Shown here: positions 1,790 through 63,501 of the stretch, in pieces
Position numbering within the stretch: the first letter of the stretch is position 1
How the letters are laid out: each line of letters starts with the position of its first letter
DNA from: Pseudomonadota bacterium
Lineage (GTDB): Bacteria > Pseudomonadota > Gammaproteobacteria > Xanthomonadales > Xanthomonadaceae
DNA: 64,000 bases
Direction of reading: 5' to 3'
Assembly (NCBI GenBank): GCA_018242425.1
Contig: JAFEBX010000009.1
Coordinates: 186,001 to 250,000, forward strand
Notes under the pieces: model-generated
Seen by the model: only the letters and a program-made list of their open reading frames with translations
The model's database searches: none
Told to the model about the DNA's origin: nothing
Translations under genes and position numbers: made by a program

Positions 1790-1979
1790 GTTGGGTGCGG
1801 AAGGGGGTTAAGGTGGATGTCGGCCAGAAGCGGCCTTAAGCCGACCCGACCAAGAGCGGTCATTTACGGGGAGAATGGCCTTACTCGCATAGCGGCAAAT
1901 TCGGCCAGCGCACTATCCTTTTTCTCAAATCAAGCGCTATCGTTCTTCGACCAACTTCGCTCTTCCACTCGAGTTCCTG

Positions 1980-2843
1980 ATGGCTGTTCTCAACCAATCG
2001 GACATCGCCGATCCGCAACGAGAAGTACAACGACTCTTGGGTCGATGCCTCTTGCGTTTGCAGCAGTACGAGCGATTGCTGAAAGCCATGATTGGAATAC
2101 AGAAGTTGTCTGGCACGCCCGAGACGCTCCCGCATGCCCTGGCCGCCCGGAAGGCCGAGGCTAGCGACAAGACACTAGGCACGTTGATCGGCCGCCTGAT
2201 GGGCGACTACATCGTGAAAGAGGGTAGTGAATCGCCTGACGACCCGCCCAAGCATCCCAGCTCCCCATTCCATTTCAGCTTCCGGATGCAGTTCAATCTG
2301 CCAGCCGAACGTCACGAGGCCCTCAATGCGGAACTACGCGAGCTGGTGACACTGCGAAATTCACTAGTGCATCACTTCATCGACTTGCATGATCTGTGGA
2401 CTATCGATGGCTGCCTTCAAGCCCAAGATTCGCTGAACCGATCATACGCAGAGATAGACCGGCACGTCGAACAACTAGCCACGCTTGCGGGCTACATGGA
2501 TGATGCAAGGCAGGCGGCAGCCGAACTAATCCAATCCCCCCAGTTCTACGACACGGTAGTCAATGGCATCGGGCCCGACGGCCAGATTTACTGGCCCATC
2601 GCCGGCATTGTCGGGGCGTTGAGGGAAGCTCTCCGGGAACTGTCCATCGATGGCTGGGTGAATCTGGATGCCGCCGTGCTGTGGGTGTCCGAGCATCATC
2701 CGCAACAAACTCCACAGAAGTACGGCTGTTCCCGCTGGCGTCAGGTCATCCACGAATCCGGACAATTCGAGTTGCGTCGCTTCGCGCACAACGGACAATT
2801 CGGGGCGTGGTATCGGGAACGGCCTAACGCGATCGACTGCTAA
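1980..2843 (+). CDS. HEPN-like / OST-HTH (LOTUS) domain protein
   Basis: The 287-residue protein has an N-terminal helical region with the segment ELVTLRNSLVHHFIDLHDLW. Its RNSLVH string fits the RX4-6H motif of HEPN domains, many of which are RNases. The C-terminal about 90 residues (WPIAGIVGALREALREL through KYGCSRWRQVIHESGQFELRR) match the OST-HTH/LOTUS pattern, a winged-helix fold predicted to bind RNA. Similar roughly 290-residue proteins occur scattered in proteobacteria, without a known function to me. The ATG at 1980 is preceded by no strong Shine-Dalgarno. Codon use is less GC-biased than the neighbours, suggesting transfer. RNA binding or cleavage is inference from domains only. Confidence 0.75.
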   Translation: MAVLNQSDIADPQREVQRLLGRCLLRLQQYERLLKAMIGIQKLSGTPETLPHALAARKAEASDKTLGTLIGRLMGDYIVKEGSESPDDPPKHPSSPFHFSFRMQFNLPAERHEALNAELRELVTLRNSLVHHFIDLHDLWTIDGCLQAQDSLNRSYAEIDRHVEQLATLAGYMDDARQAAAELIQSPQFYDTVVNGIGPDGQIYWPIAGIVGALREALRELSIDGWVNLDAAVLWVSEHHPQQTPQKYGCSRWRQVIHESGQFELRRFAHNGQFGAWYRERPNAIDC

Positions 2844-2978
2844 CAAAAGTGGCGGGGCAATTTCCCGGAATGGGCCTTCGGGCTACCGACGTCCGCCTTG
2901 GGGTCGAAGGCAGCCATATAGCGACGACGAGCCACGCCTTCTTGTAGGCTACCGGCGTTGGCAACATTGAGAAATCTC

Positions 2979-4382
2979 ATGGTCAATCGCACTCGTCGAG
3001 CTCTGCTTGGTGCGGCAGCTTGCGCCGCCATTACCTCATATGTAACGCGCAGTGAGGCAGCCACAGCGGACCGGGAATTCGTCGGCACATGGTCGGCTTT
3101 CCTGGATAGCGACGATCCACCGACTCGCCTGAGACTGATTATTGATGCGGATGGCTCAGGGCACCTGGCCGTTATGGGCATCGTCGATGTCATTGATCTT
3201 CCGATTCATCGAATCCTCATTTCCGGAAACACGCTGCGCATCGAGACCGATCAGCCGCCACTGATCTACGACGCGAAGCTTGAGAGCGGCCGTATCAAGG
3301 GAACGTGTAGCCGCGGCGGCCAGAACATTCCGCTGGATTTCGTTCGTGGCGACCTGTACACCGAGCCGCCGCCGATCAACTTTCCACCGGCACCCCTAAG
3401 CGCAAAACGCTTGCACGAATTGCGCGTCATGGCACGCGCACCGGCGATGGGAGTTGGCTGGCAATTCCTAGGCGGCCCGCGGCGCGTGCTCGTGGACGGA
3501 ATCCGTTCGGTAAACGCAAGTGTCGCCGTGACTCGACAGGACAAGTGGCATCTTGGCTCCATCACGAAATCAATGACGGCGACCCTCGCCGCACGCATCG
3601 TCGAATCGGGTCGCTTGAGCTGGGACGCACGCATCGGGGACGTCCTGGGGAGTCGATGCAGCGAGATGCTGCAGGCATATCGCGACGTCACGCTTCTGCA
3701 CATACTCAGCCATCGCGGCGGCCTGCCGCGTGACGTGACAGTAGCGCATGCTGCGGATGGTCGTTCCCTGCAACGTTTGGACTATGTTCGCGCTGCATTG
3801 CGAATGCCTCGGGTCTCGAACCCGGGCGAACAGATGCTCTACAGCAATGTGGACTACGTCGTCGCCGGCTTGATGCTGGAGACGGTGACGGGTCAGCCTT
3901 GGGAATCCCTGATCGCCGATCATGTGTTTTCTCCGCTCGACATCAAGAGCTTCGGATTCGGTCCGCCCGGCCTTGCCGGAAAATTGGATCAGCCCCAGGG
4001 CCATGAACCTGCCCGCATAGGCCTGAAGCCGACCCGCTTCGACGAAGTATCTGAAGCCATGGCACCTGCCGGTCGCGTGCACATGAATTTGGACGATTTG
4101 CTCGTCTATCTGGAAGCCCACCGCGATCGACCGGAAACCTTCCTCAGCGAACCTTCGTGGTACACCCTGCACACCCCTCCGTTCGGCGGCGACTACGCGC
4201 TTGGGTGGTCGGTTTCGCCCAGCGGCGTTCTGAGCCATGGCGGCACCAACCAGAAGTGGAAAGCGGAGGTGGTCGTAGACCCCAAGGCTAGTCTGGTCTG
4301 CTGCAGTGCGGCCAATGTTCTCAACGGCAACACGCAGTCCGCATTACTTCAATTGCTCGGTTCGGCCAGACTGAGCAAGTGA
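2979..4382 (+). CDS. Serine hydrolase, beta-lactamase (class C / PBP4*) fold, Tat-type signal
   Basis: About 467 residues. The N-terminus carries a twin-arginine-like signal (NRTRRALLGAAACAA), implying folded export. A roughly 110-residue beta-rich N-terminal segment precedes the catalytic domain. The active-site motifs of the beta-lactamase-related family are visible: SITK (Ser-x-x-Lys) in WHLGSITKSMTATL, YSN (Tyr-x-Asn) in MLYSNVDYVVAG, and SHGGTN near the C-terminus in place of the KTG box. Such enzymes are esterases, D-aminopeptidases or amidases as often as beta-lactamases; the substrate is unknown. I chose ATG 2979 over an upstream TTG at 2958 because the signal peptide starts there. 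Its codon use is less GC-rich than the flanks, like the preceding gene. Confidence 0.8.
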   Translation: MVNRTRRALLGAAACAAITSYVTRSEAATADREFVGTWSAFLDSDDPPTRLRLIIDADGSGHLAVMGIVDVIDLPIHRILISGNTLRIETDQPPLIYDAKLESGRIKGTCSRGGQNIPLDFVRGDLYTEPPPINFPPAPLSAKRLHELRVMARAPAMGVGWQFLGGPRRVLVDGIRSVNASVAVTRQDKWHLGSITKSMTATLAARIVESGRLSWDARIGDVLGSRCSEMLQAYRDVTLLHILSHRGGLPRDVTVAHAADGRSLQRLDYVRAALRMPRVSNPGEQMLYSNVDYVVAGLMLETVTGQPWESLIADHVFSPLDIKSFGFGPPGLAGKLDQPQGHEPARIGLKPTRFDEVSEAMAPAGRVHMNLDDLLVYLEAHRDRPETFLSEPSWYTLHTPPFGGDYALGWSVSPSGVLSHGGTNQKWKAEVVVDPKASLVCCSAANVLNGNTQSALLQLLGSARLSK

Positions 4383-40257: not shown

Positions 40258-41181
40258 ATGTTCTTTCGCAATCTCACGCTGTTCCGCTTTCCCGCTTCCG
40301 TTTCCTTCGCCGACATCGACGAACGCCTGCACGAAACCGCGCTCAAGCCGGTCGGCCCGCTCGAGCTGTCGTCGCGCGGCTTCATCCCGCCGTTCGGCAA
40401 TGCCGCCGAAAACGGCAATAGCGACGATGTCGCCTACCTGCACCAGATCGAACGCTCGATCTGGCTGGCGGTGGGCGGCGAGGATCGTTTGTTGCCGTCG
40501 GCGGTGGTCAATGACCAGCTGCAGAAGAAGATCGCCGAATTCGAGGCGCGCAACGGCCGCAAGCCGGGCGGCAAGATGCGTCGCCAGCTGAAGGACGAGC
40601 TCGTGACCGACCTGTTGCCGCGCGCCTTCGTGCGCCCGGTGCGCACCGATGCGCTGGTCGACCTCAAGCACCACGTCATCGCCATCGACACGTCGTCGAA
40701 GAAATCCGCGGAAGCCGTGGTCTCGCAGGTCCGCGAAGCGCTCGGCAGTTTCCCGGCATTGCCGTTGAACGCCGAAGTCGCGACCGGCACCCTGCTCACC
40801 GGCTGGCTGGCCGGTGACGCCTTGCCTGCCGGATTGTCGCTGGGCGAGGAATGCGAACTGCGCGATCCGGGCGATTCGGGCGCAGTGGTGAAGCTGCAGG
40901 GCATGGAACTGGCCGGCGAGGAAATCGAAACGCACCTCGAATCCGGCAAGCAGGTGACGCGCCTGGCGCTGAAGCTGGACGACCATGTCAGCTTCGTGCT
41001 CGGCGACGACCTGGTGATCCGCAAGTTCAAATTGCTCGATGGCGCGGTTGAACAGCTGGAATCCAGCGATCGCGACGACATCCGCGCCGAACTCGACGCC
41101 CGCTTCGCATTGATGGCCGCCGAATTCGATCGCCTGTTCTCGGTGCTGGAACCGGTGCTCAAGCTGAGCAAGGCGGGATAG
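40258..41181 (+). CDS. rdgC: Recombination-associated protein RdgC
   Basis: A 307-residue ring-forming DNA-binding protein that binds double-stranded DNA without sequence preference and restrains RecA. Family segments seen are MFFRNLTLFRFPASV at the start, FIPPFGNAA, KPGGKMRRQLKDELVTDLLP, and LKLDDHVSFVLGDDLVIRKF. Full length (E. coli 303). Its TAG stop shares one base with the GTG start of the next gene. Confidence 0.97.
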   Translation: MFFRNLTLFRFPASVSFADIDERLHETALKPVGPLELSSRGFIPPFGNAAENGNSDDVAYLHQIERSIWLAVGGEDRLLPSAVVNDQLQKKIAEFEARNGRKPGGKMRRQLKDELVTDLLPRAFVRPVRTDALVDLKHHVIAIDTSSKKSAEAVVSQVREALGSFPALPLNAEVATGTLLTGWLAGDALPAGLSLGEECELRDPGDSGAVVKLQGMELAGEEIETHLESGKQVTRLALKLDDHVSFVLGDDLVIRKFKLLDGAVEQLESSDRDDIRAELDARFALMAAEFDRLFSVLEPVLKLSKAG

Positions 41182-41933
41182 TGGCCGAGCGGGCAGCGCA
41201 CGACGACGATCTGCCCGACATCGCGTTGCGCCTCGGCGACGGGCGCACGCTGCAACTGCCCTGCAAGCGCCATCCGCGTGCGCGTCGCATCAAGCTGTCG
41301 GTGGACGAACGCGGCCCGCGCCTGACGTTGCCGTTGCGCGCCAGCCTGCGCACGGCCGAGCGTTTCGCGCAGGACCACGTGGCTTGGCTGGAGACGCAGA
41401 TCGCCCACCTCGCCGTCGATGCACGGGAGCCATTGCGCGCCGGCGTCACCACGACCTTGCCGCTGCGCGGTGAATGGCTGCCGGTGCGCTGGGTCGCCGG
41501 ACGCGTCAATCGCGTGACATTGGCGGATGGCGAATTGCTGTTCGAGCAGCGCGGGAATTCCGACAGCGCTGTGCGGCGTGCCTTGCGTGATTTCTACGAG
41601 GCGCAGGCGCGCGCCGATCTCGCAGCATGGCTGCCGAAATACGTGGGCGCACTGCCGCGCCAGCCCTCACGCATCGTGTTGCGCAAGATGAGTTCGCAAT
41701 GGGGATCGCTGGCGCCCTCGGGCGTGGTCTCGCTCGATCTGTCGCTGGTGCTGGCACGGCCATCGGCGTTCGAGTACGTGCTGGTGCACGAACTCTGCCA
41801 TCTGATTCGCGCCGATCATTCGCCGGCGTTCTGGCGCGAGGTGCAGGCGCGTTGTCCGCACTGGCGACGCGAGCGCACGTATTTCCATGCCGAGGGTCGC
41901 GCATTGAAGGCGCGCTTGCGGGTGCTTACTTGA
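41181..41933 (+). CDS. YgjP-like (DUF45) M48-type metallopeptidase domain protein
   Basis: A 250-residue protein of the YgjP/DUF45 family. The zinc site HELCHL has His203, Glu204 and His207, and a third ligand is likely in the following HSPAFWREV. The N-terminal half holds the family pattern HPRARRIKLSVDERGPRLTL, which binds the type I restriction-associated/YgjP fold. It starts at GTG 41181, overlapping the rdgC stop by one base. Members cleave peptides in vitro in some cases; the physiological substrate is unknown. It is followed immediately by the 297-bp repeat element. Confidence 0.9.
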   Translation: MAERAAHDDDLPDIALRLGDGRTLQLPCKRHPRARRIKLSVDERGPRLTLPLRASLRTAERFAQDHVAWLETQIAHLAVDAREPLRAGVTTTLPLRGEWLPVRWVAGRVNRVTLADGELLFEQRGNSDSAVRRALRDFYEAQARADLAAWLPKYVGALPRQPSRIVLRKMSSQWGSLAPSGVVSLDLSLVLARPSAFEYVLVHELCHLIRADHSPAFWREVQARCPHWRRERTYFHAEGRALKARLRVLT

Positions 41934-41936
41934 ACG

Positions 41937-42233
41937 ATCGCCCGGCTGTGCGCCTATCGCGGTTGTCTGCAGCCGCCGACACGCCGTGAATACATCCATG
42001 TAGGCTCATACGCAGCATCCATGCTGCGTATGGTCGGCGCTACAGACGAACCGCATAGGCGCCGCCGGTGGATGCTTTCAAGCCTCTAGAGAAGCAACAC
42101 CACGCGCGCGGCGGCGGGTGCACCAGTCCGGAGCGCGGGCGTTGCGCGTCATGGATGACGCGCACGAGCCTACATGGACGTACTTGCGGCGTCCCGTGCG
42201 CCGGAGCTGGTCACCCGCCAAGCCAGCGCGTGC
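41937..42233 (-). repeat. Composite multi-hairpin intergenic repeat, copy A
   Basis: This element fills nearly the whole 318-base gap between the convergent ygjP-like and hydrolase genes. It is built of two roughly 60-base units in inverted orientation around a spacer of about 90 bases. The first unit holds TACATCCATGTA (41991-42002) and a perfect hairpin of 12-bp arms, CATACGCAGCAT (42007-42018) and ATGCTGCGTATG (42021-42032), with a CC loop. The second has TGCGCGTCAT (42143-42152) and ATGACGCGCA (42155-42164). The reverse complement aligns over its whole length with copy B at 60341-60632. Short frames reading MDVFTACRR or MDVLAASRAP come from it and are not genes. Confidence 0.85.
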
Positions 42234-42251: not shown

Positions 42252-43115
42252 TCAGTCAGCATGTGCCAGGAATGGCCCGATCCATTCCGCGACCGGCTGC
42301 GGCGTTTCCATGTGCAGGTGATGCGTGCCCGCCATCGCCAGCAGTTCACCGTGCGGCAATGCGTCGACGTAGCGACGGCGCACATCCGCCGGCAGGTAGG
42401 GCTGCGCCGGATCGGCGAACACCACTCGCGTCGGGCACTCGATGCCCGCACATACCCTCACCACTTGCGCATCGACCGGGCGCAGCCACGTCGGCACCAT
42501 CAGGCGCGGATCACTGCTCCACTGCCAGCCACCGGGCACCTCGCGCATGCCACGCTCGACGATCAGTCGCGCCACCGGCTCGCTCATCGCGTTGGCGCGC
42601 ATCCGCGCATGGATCGCCACGCCCGGCTCCGGGAACACCCGCAGCGATTTGCCATCGATCGCACGCATCGCCGCCACCGACTCGCGCATCCGCAGCGCGG
42701 TATTTTCGGCTTCGTCCGCAAGGCCGCCCAGCGCCTCGATGCACACCAGTCGCTCGATGCGGTCCGGGCATGCGGCGGCGACCAGACTGGCGATGCCCGC
42801 GCCCATCGAGTGTCCAAGCAGGGTGAAACGCTGCCAGCCCAGCGCATCGGCGATGTCGAGGACGTGGTGCACTGCCATTTCGAAGGTGTAGATCGCGCCC
42901 GGCGGCAGGTGCACGCTGCGGCCGTGGCCAGGCAGGTCGACCGCGACCAGTTCGATGCCGGACAGGTGCTTCGCCAGCGGGACGAAACTCGCGGCATTGT
43001 CGAGCCAGCCATGCAGCGCCAACACGCGCGGGGCATTTTCCGCCGCCGCGGATCGCAATCCCGTGATCCTGCCCAGCGGGATATCGACGAACGTTTCGTT
43101 CAATTCGAGGCTCAT
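42252..43115 (-). CDS. Alpha/beta fold hydrolase
   Basis: A 287-residue cytoplasmic hydrolase. The oxyanion region is LALHGWLDNAASF, the nucleophile elbow is GHSMGAGIAS with Ser103, an acid is likely around VVFADPAQPY, and the catalytic His lies in AGTHHLHMETP. The start overlaps the hemH stop by ATGA, so the pair is translationally coupled. Serine hydrolases like this accompany ferrochelatase in related genomes; the substrate (ester or epoxide) cannot be told from the sequence. Confidence 0.88.
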   Translation of the reverse strand: MSLELNETFVDIPLGRITGLRSAAAENAPRVLALHGWLDNAASFVPLAKHLSGIELVAVDLPGHGRSVHLPPGAIYTFEMAVHHVLDIADALGWQRFTLLGHSMGAGIASLVAAACPDRIERLVCIEALGGLADEAENTALRMRESVAAMRAIDGKSLRVFPEPGVAIHARMRANAMSEPVARLIVERGMREVPGGWQWSSDPRLMVPTWLRPVDAQVVRVCAGIECPTRVVFADPAQPYLPADVRRRYVDALPHGELLAMAGTHHLHMETPQPVAEWIGPFLAHAD

Positions 43116-59211: not shown

Positions 59212-60330
59212 ATGCGTATCGGCGTCCCCAAGGAAATCAAGGTCCACGAATACCGCGTCGGCCTCATTCCGTCCTCCGTGCACGAACTGGTGCACCACGG
59301 CCATGAAGTGCTGGTGGAGAAGGGCGCGGGCCTCGGCGCCGGCCTGACCGACGCCGACTACATCGCCGCCGGCGGCAAGATCATCGACACCGCCGACGAA
59401 ATCTTCGCCAACGCCGACATGATCGTGAAGGTGAAGGAACCGCAGGCCGTGGAGCGCAAGAAGCTGCGCCCGGGCCAGATCCTCTTCACCTACCTGCACC
59501 TGGCCCCCGACGCACCGCAGACCCAGGACTTGATCGATTCGGGCGCGGTCTGCATCGCCTATGAAACCGTCACTGCAAACAATGGTTCGCTGCCGCTGCT
59601 GACGCCGATGTCGGAAGTCGCCGGTCGCCTCGCCCCGCAGGTGGGCGCGCATTCGCTGGAGAAGGCCCAGGGTGGCCGCGGCGTGCTGCTCGGCGGCGTG
59701 CCGGGCGTTCCGGCTGCGGAAGTCGTGATCCTCGGTGGCGGCGTCTCGGGCACGCATGCCGCGACGATCGCGGTCGGCATGGGCGCCAAGGTCACCGTGG
59801 TCGATCGTTCGGCCGATGCCCTCAAGCGCTTGGCCGCGCAGTTCGGAACGTCGATCTCCACCGTGTTCTCGACCCGCGCCGCGATCGAGGAGCTGGTGCG
59901 TCGCGCCGACCTGCTGATCGGCACCGTGCTGGTCCCGGGTGCTGCCGCACCGAAGCTGGTCACCAAGGAAATGGTCAAGACGATGAAGCCGGGCGCGGTG
60001 ATCGTCGACGTCGCCATCGACCAGGGCGGCTGCGTGGAAACCTCGCACGCCACCACCCACGCCGACCCCACCTATGTCGTCGATGGCGTCGTGCACTACT
60101 GCGTGGCCAACATGCCCGGCGCAGTCGCGCGCACCTCGACCTTCGCGCTCAACAGCGTCACCCTGCCCTTCACCCTGGCGCTGGCCAACAACGGCTGGAA
60201 GAAGGCGCTGACCCAGGACGTGCACCTGCGCAACGGCCTGAACGTGTGCGAAGGCAAGATCACCTGCGAACCGGTGGCCGAAGCGCACAACCTGCCGTAC
60301 GTGCCGGCGGAACAGCTGATCGGCGCCTGA
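59212..60330 (+). CDS. ald: Alanine dehydrogenase
   Basis: A 372-residue NAD-dependent enzyme interconverting L-alanine and pyruvate plus ammonia. It starts MRIGVPKEIKVHEYRVGLIP; the catalytic Lys is in VKVKEPQ and the His in LFTYLHLAPD; the NAD-binding motif is LGGGVSGTHAA. Full length. The frame is open upstream to 59086, but the conserved protein starts at ATG 59212, which has GGAG upstream. It converges with the large M16 gene across repeat copy B. Confidence 0.97.
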   Translation: MRIGVPKEIKVHEYRVGLIPSSVHELVHHGHEVLVEKGAGLGAGLTDADYIAAGGKIIDTADEIFANADMIVKVKEPQAVERKKLRPGQILFTYLHLAPDAPQTQDLIDSGAVCIAYETVTANNGSLPLLTPMSEVAGRLAPQVGAHSLEKAQGGRGVLLGGVPGVPAAEVVILGGGVSGTHAATIAVGMGAKVTVVDRSADALKRLAAQFGTSISTVFSTRAAIEELVRRADLLIGTVLVPGAAAPKLVTKEMVKTMKPGAVIVDVAIDQGGCVETSHATTHADPTYVVDGVVHYCVANMPGAVARTSTFALNSVTLPFTLALANNGWKKALTQDVHLRNGLNVCEGKITCEPVAEAHNLPYVPAEQLIGA

Positions 60331-60340
60331 GGGCGCCATC

Positions 60341-60632
60341 GCACGCGCTGTCTCAGCAGGTGGCCAGTCCGGCGCGCGGGACGCCGTGAATACATCCATG
60401 TAGGCTCGTGCGCGTCATCCATGACGCGCAACGCCCGGTTACCGGACCGGCCACCCACTGAGCGCGCGTGTTGTGGCTTTGCGGAGACTTGAAAGCCACC
60501 ACCGGCGGCGCCGTGCGGTTCGTCCGCTGTGGCCGACCATGCGAGGCATGGATGCCGAGCCGAGCCTCCATGGACGGATTCACGGCGTGTCGGCCGTAGC
60601 GGATAACCGCTAGAGGCGCAAAGCCGGGCGAT
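60341..60632 (+). repeat. Composite multi-hairpin intergenic repeat, copy B
   Basis: This fills most of the 333-base gap between convergent ald and M16 genes. It aligns along its length with the reverse complement of copy A at 41937-42233, from GCACGCGCTG at the start to GCCGGGCGAT at the end. The first unit has TACATCCATGTA (60391-60402) and the hairpin TGCGCGTCAT (60409-60418), CC, ATGACGCGCA (60421-60430). The inverted second unit has GGCAT-GG-ATGCC (60545-60556). The spacer includes CTTGAAAGC and CCGGCGGCGCC in common with copy A. Frames such as MDVFTASRAP come from it and are not genes. Confidence 0.85.
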
Positions 60633-60663: not shown

Positions 60664-63501
60664 TTACTTCACCGGCTTGCCGTTGGCATCGACCACCGTG
60701 ACTTCGCCGAGATTGAGCGCGCGCACCGGCGCCTCGATCTTCTTGAGATCGCCGACCACCACCCAGGTCAACGCGTCCGGCTTGATCGCCTTGATCGCGT
60801 CGGCGACTTGCGCCGGCGTCAGGTTGGCGATCTGTTCGTTGCGCACCTGGATCCAGTTGTCGGGGCGGCCGTAGCGCACGATCCCGGTCATGGTGCCGAG
60901 CACTGCGCCCGCGGTTTCATACGCGCCCGGCTGGCCACGCAGTTCGTTGTTGACCACCTTGGTCACTTCGTCCTGCGTCGCCGGCTTCTTGCCAGTGGAG
61001 TAATCGCTGATCTCGCGACGCGCCTCGGCGATCGACTCCGCTGTCTTGTCGATCTGAACCGGCGCCAGCGCCAGCCACGGCCGCTGCCCCTGCGCATCCA
61101 CCGCGGTGGTGTAGGCCCCATAGGACCAGTGCTTGTCTTCGCGCAGGTTCATGTTGAGGCGCGAGGAGAACACGCCGCCGAGGATGTCGTTGGCCATCGA
61201 CAGCTTCACCGCGCCCGGATCGCGCGTCGAAGGCACCAGCTCCGCGGCCATGATGTTGGCCTGCACCGCGCCCGGCTGGTCGATCAGGAACACGCGCGTC
61301 TTCGACGGCAGCGCCACCTGCGGCAGGCTCATGGACTTGGATGCGGCGCCTTCTCCCTTCCAGTCGCCGAGGTGGCGATTGAGCACCGGCAGCAACTTGT
61401 CCATCGTGGTATCGCCAACCACGACCAGCGTGGCGTTTTCCGGGCGCAACCATGCGCGGCGGTAAGCATCGAGATCGTCGCGCGAAATCGTCGCCACCGA
61501 TGCCTCGGTGCCGGAGCCGGTCAATGGCATCGCGTAAGGATGGCCTTCGCCGTACAGGAGCGGCGGCAGCACGCGCAGCGCAGCGCTGTTCGGCCGCGCC
61601 TTCTCCTGGCGGATGCCGGCGATGCGCATCGCCTTGACGCGATCGATATCGCCCTGGCTGAAAGCCGGCTTGCGCAACATGTCGGCGAACAGCCCGACCG
61701 AAGCATCGAGCTTGCTGGTCAGCGCCGACAGGGTGGCGGACGAACCATCGATGCCCGCGCTGGAACCCAGTTGCGCGCCCAGCGCTTCGGCATCCGACTT
61801 GAAGGTCAGCGCATCGCGGCCGCCGGCGCCTTCGCGCAACATGCCCATCGCGAACGACGCGGTGCCGAGCTTGCCGCCGAAATCGCTGGAATAACCGCCG
61901 TCGAACAGGTAGTTCATCTGCACCACGGGAATTTCGTGGCGCTCGGCGAGGATCACGGTGGTGCCGTTGTCGAGCTTGCCGCGCTGCATCGCCGGGAAGG
62001 TCAGCGTCGGGTAACGATCAACCTTGGGCACGCCGGCCTTGCGGTCGACATCGCTGGCGATGGTCTTGTACTTGGGATCGACCTTCGGCATCACGAACGG
62101 CGCCGGCTTCACGCTCGGGTCTTCCGCCAGCGGCTTGCGCTCGCCCGGCTCGACCACGAAGACATGGCTCGGCTTCTTCAGCCACGCGTTGCCGATCTTG
62201 GTGACATCGGCAGCGGTCGCGGCCTGGACATTGGCGATGCTGGTGCGGAAGCAGCCGGGATTGCCGGTGTAGATCGCGCACGACGCCAGCGCGTCAGCCT
62301 TGCCGCCGAAACCGCCGATGCGTTCGACGCCGCGGATGAAATTGGCTTCGAAGGTGGTGCGCGCGCGCGACAGTTCATCGGCGCTCGGGCCTTCGCGCAA
62401 CAACTTCTGCAGTTCCTCGTCGATCACCGCCTCGACCTTCTTCGGATCGACGCCCTGCTTGACCATCGCGGTGACGATGAAATTGCCGCCGAGCTGCGAG
62501 GCATCGTTCGACACGCTGACCGAATCGACCAGCTTGTCCTGGTAGACGAGGCGGCGGTCGAGGCGCGAGCTGGCGCTACCGCCGAGCACCTGCGCGAACA
62601 GGTCGAGCATGTCGGAATCGCGCGTCCCCACCTGCGCGACGTTCCACGCCCGCATCATCCGCACCTGCGGGACCTTGTCCTGCAGCACGGTGCGGCCGCT
62701 TGCCTTCAGCGGCGCGGGATCGGCCTTCACCGCCGCCATGGTCGGCGTCGCCGGGATGTCGCCGAAATAACGCGCGACCTTCTGCTTGGCGGTGGCGAGA
62801 TCGATGTCGCCAGCCAGCACCAGCACCGCGTTGTTCGGTCCGTACCAGGTGCGGAACCACGTCTTGACGTCATTGAGGCTGGCGCCGTTGAGATCGCTCA
62901 TCGAGCCGATCGTGGTGTGGTGGTAGGGATGCCCCTTCGGATACATCGTCTTGGCCACCACCTGCCACAGCTGGCCATAGGGCTGGTTCTCGCCCTGGCG
63001 CTTTTCGTTCTGCACCACGCCGCGCTGTTCGTCGAGCACGCCCTGGTCGATCGCGCCAAGCAGGTGGCCCATGCGATCGGATTCCATCCACAGCGCCATG
63101 TCGAGCGCGGTGGTCGGCACGTTTTCGAAATAATTTGTGCGATCGGTATTCGTGGTGCCGTTCTGCCCGGTCGCGCCGGCCTGTTCGAACGGCGGGAAGT
63201 AGTCACCCGGATGGTTTTCGGAACCGTTGAACATCAGGTGCTCGAACAGATGCGCGAAACCGCTGCGACCCGCCGGCTCGTTGAGGCTGCCGACGTGATA
63301 CCAGATGTTGACCGCCACGATCGGCGCCTTGTGGTCCTCGTGCACGATCACCCGCAAGCCGTTGGGCAAGGTGAACTGCTGGTAGGCGATGTCCACCGTG
63401 GGCGCGTTGCCCTTGGCGAATACGGTGGTCGGCGCGATGGCGCCGCAGGCACTGGCAGCGATTGCGAGTGCGAGGGCGGCGTGGCGGGTCTTCAAACGCA
63501 T
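60664..63501 (-). CDS. Large two-domain M16 zinc peptidase
   Basis: A 945-residue exported peptidase (signal AALALAIAASACGAIA) holding the catalytic and non-catalytic M16 halves in one chain. HLFEH in RSGFAHLFEHLMFNG gives His84, Glu87 and His88; the third ligand is likely the Glu in RGVVQNEKRQGENQP. The second half repeats the fold from LTFPAMQRGKLDNGTTVILA. The ATG at 63501 follows AAGGGGAG. It is probably periplasmic and degrades peptides; it is the fused equivalent of the two-gene pair at 20530-23348. Confidence 0.95.
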   Translation of the reverse strand: MRLKTRHAALALAIAASACGAIAPTTVFAKGNAPTVDIAYQQFTLPNGLRVIVHEDHKAPIVAVNIWYHVGSLNEPAGRSGFAHLFEHLMFNGSENHPGDYFPPFEQAGATGQNGTTNTDRTNYFENVPTTALDMALWMESDRMGHLLGAIDQGVLDEQRGVVQNEKRQGENQPYGQLWQVVAKTMYPKGHPYHHTTIGSMSDLNGASLNDVKTWFRTWYGPNNAVLVLAGDIDLATAKQKVARYFGDIPATPTMAAVKADPAPLKASGRTVLQDKVPQVRMMRAWNVAQVGTRDSDMLDLFAQVLGGSASSRLDRRLVYQDKLVDSVSVSNDASQLGGNFIVTAMVKQGVDPKKVEAVIDEELQKLLREGPSADELSRARTTFEANFIRGVERIGGFGGKADALASCAIYTGNPGCFRTSIANVQAATAADVTKIGNAWLKKPSHVFVVEPGERKPLAEDPSVKPAPFVMPKVDPKYKTIASDVDRKAGVPKVDRYPTLTFPAMQRGKLDNGTTVILAERHEIPVVQMNYLFDGGYSSDFGGKLGTASFAMGMLREGAGGRDALTFKSDAEALGAQLGSSAGIDGSSATLSALTSKLDASVGLFADMLRKPAFSQGDIDRVKAMRIAGIRQEKARPNSAALRVLPPLLYGEGHPYAMPLTGSGTEASVATISRDDLDAYRRAWLRPENATLVVVGDTTMDKLLPVLNRHLGDWKGEGAASKSMSLPQVALPSKTRVFLIDQPGAVQANIMAAELVPSTRDPGAVKLSMANDILGGVFSSRLNMNLREDKHWSYGAYTTAVDAQGQRPWLALAPVQIDKTAESIAEARREISDYSTGKKPATQDEVTKVVNNELRGQPGAYETAGAVLGTMTGIVRYGRPDNWIQVRNEQIANLTPAQVADAIKAIKPDALTWVVVGDLKKIEAPVRALNLGEVTVVDANGKPVK

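What the first reader, a model, noticed from the sequence alone, without database searches (positions are those of the whole stretch)
41937..42233. Composite repeat of about 295 bp, two copies, always between convergent genes
Copy A (41937-42233), when reverse-complemented, aligns with copy B (60341-60632) end to end, with scattered substitutions and small gaps. Each copy contains two inverted roughly 60-base units around a spacer of about 90 bases, and each sits exactly in the gap between two convergent genes. The two units within a copy, and the two copies, differ in their hairpin arms but keep pairing. This points to conserved structure and hence a function such as bidirectional transcription termination, RNA processing or chromosome organisation, or to mobility as a non-autonomous element.
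Basis: seen in the sequence. Interest (0 to 1): 0.62.

Follow-up and report, generated by a model that had tools for sequence, protein, structure and literature searches.

The report
Dispersed 3'-end repeat with CsrA-like sites
The two repeats are members of a scattered hairpin element known from Yersinia as YPAL; it turns out to be spread across many gammaproteobacteria, sits right behind genes and mostly between genes that face each other, and carries a conserved double hairpin that looks like a docking site for the global RNA-binding regulator CsrA.

Summary
Copy A and copy B are 80.9% identical over 298 bp. Each is an inverted pair of two ~130-nt units (not 60-nt units), type 1 and type 2. 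Each unit is a long stem ending in a three-way junction with two small hairpins that covary strongly. The genome (a Solilutibacter relative) holds 79 units at 54 sites. Pairs always face inward; 16 of 19 pairs and 29 of 46 sites lie between convergent genes (background 14% of gene pairs), median 10 bp after a stop codon. Sites are present or absent between close relatives. The core is that of the Yersinia element YPAL/RU-2 (Rfam Ysr224, below threshold here) and occurs in about 35 gammaproteobacterial genera sampled. New proposal: on the complementary strand both hairpins show the CsrA/RsmA signature CANGGANG, 23 nt apart, and stem mismatches favour G-U pairs on that same strand in 28 of 31 informative genus-level groups. 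So the conserved head is probably a CsrA-dimer docking site carried at gene 3' ends, helping to close off or protect transcripts. Structure, motif, strand bias and placement are shown; CsrA binding and the effect on transcripts are inferred.

The parts
41937..42233 (.). Copy A, whole composite (type-1 unit + inverted type-2 unit)
41937..42069 (+). Copy A, type-1 unit (TCCA strand is +)
41983..42005 (-). Copy A type-1 hairpin 1; on the - strand reads GCCUACAUGGAUGUAUUCACGGC, CANGGANG motif
42007..42032 (-). Copy A type-1 hairpin 2; on the - strand loop CAUGGAUG
42070..42101 (.). Copy A spacer between the units
42102..42233 (-). Copy A, type-2 unit (TCCA strand is -)
42143..42164 (+). Copy A type-2 hairpin 2; + strand loop CATGGATG
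42168..42190 (+). Copy A type-2 hairpin 1; + strand CATGGACG
60341..60632 (.). Copy B, whole composite (type-2 unit + inverted type-1 unit)
60341..60470 (+). Copy B, type-2 unit (TCCA strand is +)
60383..60405 (-). Copy B type-2 hairpin 1, CANGGANG on the - strand
60409..60430 (-). Copy B type-2 hairpin 2, CANGGANG on the - strand
60500..60632 (-). Copy B, type-1 unit (TCCA strand is -)
60541..60559 (+). Copy B type-1 hairpin 2, CATGGATG on the + strand
60564..60586 (+). Copy B type-1 hairpin 1, CATGGACG on the + strand
41181..41933 (+). Flanking gene of copy A (metallopeptidase-like, HELCH motif); stop 3 bp before the element
42252..43115 (-). Flanking gene of copy A (alpha/beta-hydrolase-like by sequence reading); stop 18 bp after the element
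59212..60330 (+). Flanking gene of copy B (alanine-dehydrogenase-like by sequence reading); stop 10 bp before the element
60664..63501 (-). Flanking gene of copy B (M16-peptidase-like by sequence reading); stop 31 bp after the element

Best explanation
Both copies are inward-facing pairs of a YPAL-type dispersed element that has spread to gene 3' ends and is kept mainly between convergent genes. The part conserved across Gammaproteobacteria is a head of two small hairpins on a variable long stem. Read on the strand complementary to the TCCA strand, this head presents two GGA loops with the CsrA/RsmA consensus CANGGANG at a fixed distance of 23 nt, suited to one CsrA dimer. I propose that a transcript running past either gene meets first the TCCA-strand unit and then, just before the opposing gene, the TGGA-strand unit. 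That unit folds and binds CsrA, helping to set or protect the 3' end and keep transcription out of the neighbour. Shown: anatomy, covariation, motif, spacing, strand bias of wobble pairs, placement, presence/absence. Inferred: CsrA binding, termination or stabilisation, mode of spread.
For: Same core as the printed Y. pestis RU-2/YPAL sequence and Ysr224 hits with E 9e-4 and 3e-3, below gathering. 79 units in the genome. Convergent enrichment: own 29/46 sites and 16/19 pairs against 45/325 background gene pairs; Solilutibacter silvestris 18/20 against 2/45. Stop-to-element distance median 10 bp. At copy B the close relative G005 has a classical bidirectional intrinsic terminator in the same gap. 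Covariation across about 35 genera. Hairpin 2, found without using its loop sequence, has GGA in 87 of 92 and CANGGANG in 66 of 92, chance about 0.01. GGA-GGA spacing 23 nt, 5-95% range 22-24. Stem wobbles favour the TGGA strand in 28 of 31 genus-level groups, p 5e-6. CsrA consensus and bridging distance 10-63 nt, optimum above 18 nt: PMC6692469, PMC6849547, PMC7652899. 39 of 40 element-bearing genomes encode CsrA.
Against: No binding or expression data. Rfam Ysr224 is drawn on the TCCA strand. The nearest gene reads the TCCA strand, so the CsrA-like strand is transcribed only by read-through from the opposing gene or by antisense transcription. The lowest-energy fold of the TGGA strand leaves both GGAs open in 48 of 89 foreign units but only 12 of 64 own units. 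CsrA is nearly universal in the class (205 of 232), so co-occurrence is weak evidence (p 0.03). Elements are absent from many relatives, so they are dispensable. Hairpin 1 of the foreign set was chosen with its loop in the search pattern, so only hairpin 2 counts as unconditioned.
Confidence: 0.52

Rival explanations
1. A YPAL-type 3'-end structure that works by its fold alone, as a two-way terminator or barrier to 3' exonucleases, with the conserved head needed for folding or an unknown factor, not for CsrA.
For: Placement right behind stop codons and at convergent ends; terminator in the same gap of G005; literature: YPAL sits just after stop codons and YPAL-bearing transcripts accumulate more (De Gregorio 2006, abstract from memory; summarised in PMC2229807); A/T flanks at the foot of many type-1 units.
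Against: Does not explain why exactly C, A, GGA and G of both loops are fixed while the two N positions vary, nor the fixed 23-nt spacing, nor the wobble bias toward the strand that the nearest gene does not transcribe. Terminator scans weak.
Confidence: 0.25
2. A selfish miniature element whose two hairpins are recognised as folded single-stranded DNA by an unknown mobilising enzyme; the strand bias reflects the mobilised strand, and convergent placement is left by purifying selection against insertions elsewhere.
For: Presence/absence at orthologous sites; inward-facing pairs recur in other genera, as in REPINs; near-identical recent copies in Methylotuvimicrobium with TATACC...GGTATA ends and no convergent preference.
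Against: Ends and outer stems differ completely between lineages while the head is constant, odd if one enzyme moves them all; no target duplication excess in the own genome; no RAYT correlation; the motif match to CsrA would be a coincidence.
Confidence: 0.2
3. A REP/BIME of the GTAG class moved by a RAYT.
For: Inverted pairing, intergenic, high copy.
Against: No conserved foot tetranucleotide; RAYT absent where copies abound; core matches YPAL instead.
Confidence: 0.03

Closest known systems
YPAL / RU-2 of Yersinia (De Gregorio 2006; Delihas 2007, PMC2759123, PMC2229807)
   Same: Same core: stem, GACGCCGTAAATACATCCATGTAGGCTCG hairpin, second TCC-loop hairpin; intergenic, hairpin-forming, just after stop codons, filled/empty sites.
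   Different: YPAL is a single ~167-bp element; here two types of ~130-nt unit form an inward-facing 297-bp pair, outer stems unrelated; target duplications (3-26 bp in YPAL) not detectable; convergent preference and CsrA-like loops not reported in what I could read.
Rfam RF02770 Ysr224
   Same: Matches both units of copy A over the whole model with E 9e-4 and 3e-3.
   Different: Scores 25.5 and 23.9 bits against a gathering score of 70; annotated as an sRNA on the TCCA strand.
CsrA-binding RNAs (CsrB, RsmY, RsmX/Z)
   Same: Hairpins with GGA in the loop, more than one per RNA, bridging distance.
   Different: Not a single-copy sRNA gene with a promoter (none found); two sites per unit; dispersed in up to about 80 copies at 3' ends.
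REPIN/BIME and SMAG (GTAG REPs)
   Same: Inverted doublets of palindromic units, dispersed intergenically.
   Different: Units several times longer, no GTAG/GGAG foot, no RAYT.

Membership tests
YPAL/RU-2 | Core sequence and two-hairpin structure of the Y. pestis element | tested here: met
   RU-2 core from PMC2759123 aligns column by column with the units (A2) and keeps the pairs
YPAL/RU-2 | Lies closely downstream of stop codons | tested here: met
   Median 10 bp, 33 gene ends
YPAL/RU-2 | Filled and empty sites between close relatives | tested here: met
   Of 9 comparable sites on C24, 7 lack the element in G005
YPAL/RU-2 | Target site duplication of 3-26 bp | tested here: inconclusive
   CTTGAACG/CTTGAGCG at copy A, but no excess over shuffled flanks (156 of 500)
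YPAL/RU-2 | About 167 bp single palindrome | tested here: not met
   ~130-nt units in 297-bp inverted pairs; hence filed as YPAL-type, not as YPAL proper
YPAL/RU-2 | Raises the level of the upstream mRNA | not testable with these tools
   needs RNA measurements
Rfam RF02770 Ysr224 | Score at or above gathering (70 bits) | tested here: not met
   25.5 and 23.9 bits
CsrA/RsmA-binding RNA | ANGGA in a hairpin loop | tested here: met
   GGA in 87/92, CANGGANG in 66/92 second hairpins
CsrA/RsmA-binding RNA | Two sites 10-63 nt apart for dimer bridging | tested here: met
   23 nt start to start (range from PMC7652899)
CsrA/RsmA-binding RNA | Binds CsrA | not testable with these tools
   needs gel shift or CLIP
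CsrB/RsmY-type sRNA gene | Own promoter | tested here: not met
   No sigma-70-like promoter in either element region; simple scan only
REPIN / RAYT element | RAYT in the genome | tested here: not met
   No PF01797 in G000, G002, G005, G014
MITE | Terminal inverted repeats and target duplication | tested here: inconclusive
   Clear TATACC ends in Methylotuvimicrobium, not in this genome

The most novel reading that the evidence does not exclude
YPAL-type repeats are mobile CsrA-dimer docking sites. One conserved RNA head rides on unrelated miniature elements across Gammaproteobacteria and plugs gene 3' ends, up to about 160 sites per genome, into the Csr/Rsm network as distributed sponge and 3'-end control.
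Probability: 0.42. Interest if true: 0.82.

Novelty: new variant of a known kind. Interest (0 to 1): 0.62.

Why it matters
YPAL has been treated as a Yersinia repeat and its relative Ysr224 as a prevalent sRNA. Here the same head is found in about 35 sampled gammaproteobacterial genera, with a motif that names a partner protein. If CsrA binds, these repeats would tie transposition to a global regulator, explain why the head is conserved while stems and ends are not, and add 3' ends to a network studied mostly at 5' ends. The prediction can be tested with one gel shift.

Tried and rejected
Rfam at gathering threshold: nothing in the window. Plasmid collection: no match. Paper search by raw sequence: none. 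RAYT as mobiliser: contradicted. Target duplications: no excess. First idea that RNA of the TCCA strand is what folds: rejected, since G-U pairs prefer the other strand. Structure strings of wrong length. The De Gregorio 2006 paper itself is not held.

Full report
WHAT IS THERE. Copy A (41937-42233) and copy B (60341-60632) match in opposite orientation at 80.9% over 298 bp. Fourteen other complete copies in the genome align with them and show the plan. A composite is a type-1 unit (starts ATCGCCCGGCT) and a type-2 unit (starts GCACGCGCTG) facing each other, about 130 nt each, with a spacer of about 30 nt. Each unit is a long imperfect stem that opens into a three-way junction with two hairpins. 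Hairpin 1 is GCC-GTGAA-NNCR-TCCA-TGNN-GGC, hairpin 2 is a longer stem with the same loop. All four units of the window fold much better than shuffles. On 22 distinct units of this genome 96.5% of hairpin cells pair, with 38 double changes and none of 500 shuffles as high.

COPIES. A covariance model finds 79 units in the 2.7-Mb genome, at 54 sites. The two- and three-unit sites are all inward-facing or extended from that ('><' at 21 sites, plus one '><<' and one '>><'), never a lone outward pair. Many single units are composites whose partner has lost its head, e.g. C24:267528 and C24:137692. The genus is patchy: 0 to about 75 units per genome. One relative, G007, has a contig of the same length as one of Solilutibacter (Lysobacter) silvestris AM20-91, so the window comes from that genus or close to it (inference).

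PLACEMENT. With a codon-usage gene caller of my own, 29 of 46 sites with both neighbours lie between convergent genes, 15 between tandem and 2 between divergent genes; 16 of 19 pairs are convergent. Background: 45 of 325 gene pairs are convergent, and 8-10% of gaps or intergenic bases. Fisher p is 4e-12 for sites and 1e-10 for pairs. In S. silvestris 18 of 20 sites are convergent against 2 of 45 background pairs. A genome of another family (G040) shows 9 of 19 against 5 of 42. The element begins a median 10 bp from the stop codon. Single units in convergent gaps lie nearer to the gene that reads the TCCA strand in 41 of 46 cases; in tandem gaps the orientation bias is 39 to 25, not significant (the 41:5 and 39:25 totals were added up by hand from those calls).

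ORTHOLOGOUS SITES. The close relative G005 lacks copy A (the two genes overlap by 4 bp at their stops) and G002 has a decayed copy. At copy B, G005 has a classical two-way intrinsic terminator, AAAAAAGGGACGGATCGCAGGATCCGTCCCTTTTT, in a 72-bp gap, while G002 has one type-2 unit and a remnant of type 1. Over nine comparable sites of contig C24, two are filled in both and seven are empty in G005. So the element comes and goes. In one of the seven empty sites a terminator stands where the element is. I found no excess of target duplications.

FAMILY. Rfam at gathering threshold is silent, but Ysr224, a Yersinia sRNA, matches both units of copy A weakly. The printed Y. pestis RU-2/YPAL sequence (PMC2759123) contains, reverse-complemented, GACGCCGTAAATACATCCATGTAGGCTCGAGCCGCGCCATCCTTGGCGCGGACGC, the same head. 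An exact pattern for hairpin 1 hits more than 119 contigs of Stenotrophomonas, Xanthomonas, Arenimonas, Marinobacter, Microbulbifer, Rheinheimera, Methylotuvimicrobium, Saccharospirillum and others, and around it the junction and second hairpin are the same while the long stem differs from species to species. A model of 37 diverse heads finds it in 40 of 232 genomes of the class, 35 of 197 genera. In a phylum-wide sample 20 of 22 positive genomes are of the class and the other two have one marginal hit each. YPAL is described as sitting after stop codons, mobile, and with target duplications of 3-26 bp (stop codons: De Gregorio 2006 abstract, from memory; the rest PMC2229807); it is counted in most Yersinia genomes (PMC2847712). 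Ysr224 is listed among the most prevalent 'sRNAs' of bacteria (PMC9029176), which a dispersed repeat would explain.

THE CsrA READING. On the strand opposite to TCCA both loops read CANGGANG. The CsrA SELEX consensus is RUACARGGAUGU and the RsmE consensus (A/U)CANGGANG(U/A), in hairpin loops (PMC6692469, PMC6849547). Hairpin 1 here reads UACAUGGAUGUA. In the 37-sequence alignment the loop letters corresponding to C, A, GGA and G are fixed or nearly so, and the columns corresponding to the two Ns are the variable ones. Because hairpin 1 was in the search pattern, hairpin 2 is the fair test: located without its loop sequence, it carries GGA in 87 of 92 foreign units and the full CANGGANG in 66; chance for the octamer in such a stretch is about 0.01. 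The two GGAs start 23 nt apart with a 5-95% range of 22 to 24; a CsrA dimer bridges sites 10-63 nt apart, best above 18 (PMC7652899). Independent of the loops, mismatches in the long stems are A-C on the TCCA strand about three times as often as G-T (174 to 61 in foreign units), spread along the stem. By genus-level groups 28 lean that way, 3 the other (p 5e-6). Such mismatches are G-U pairs on the CsrA-like strand, so that strand is the one whose RNA fold is kept. 39 of 40 element-bearing genomes of the class sample have CsrA, against 166 of 192 without elements (p 0.03; the exception, G215, is a 270-contig draft). No held paper mentions CsrA together with YPAL.

MECHANISM. In an inward-facing pair each gene's transcript would meet first the near unit as TCCA RNA and then the far unit as TGGA RNA, right before the opposing stop codon. 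I infer that the far unit folds, binds CsrA and limits read-through or protects the 3' end. For single units only the opposing gene reaches the CsrA-like strand. That geometry is the weak point: it needs read-through past the near unit, and own units do not always keep both GGAs open in the lowest-energy fold (12 of 64, against 48 of 89 foreign units). A selfish element with a DNA-hairpin-specific enzyme would also give strand bias and presence/absence, and the recent Methylotuvimicrobium copies with TATACC ends and no convergent preference suggest that placement is partly sorted by selection after insertion.

VERDICT. A real, dispersed, YPAL-type element, new as an inward-facing two-type pair and as a class-wide family, with a testable and apparently unreported link to CsrA.

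Noticed in passing
L336 (G428:C1:92500-97500), 1947-3110: Six YPAL-type heads in direct tandem every ~227 bp, each alternating with a GTAG-type REP (TTTTTTGTAGGAGCGGCTTCAGCCGCGATAAG); a possible natural CsrA sponge array or a repeat-on-repeat mosaic.
   Followed up: partly
   Followed up: partly
G000 contigs C2, C3, C12, C16, C18, C21, C24: Several assembly contigs end inside or at these elements, so the true copy number is probably slightly different.
   Followed up: no
window 59212-60330: The alanine-dehydrogenase-like protein is 96-97% identical in G002 and G005 but has only ~46% matches in other genomes of the same genus, while some genomes of other families match at 60-66%; replacement or loss of the gene in most of the genus.
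   Followed up: no
L002, L016 ends (C18:403648, C24:294657): Two composites carry an extra piece of type-2 end outside the pair, as if a second insertion had landed on the first.
   Followed up: no
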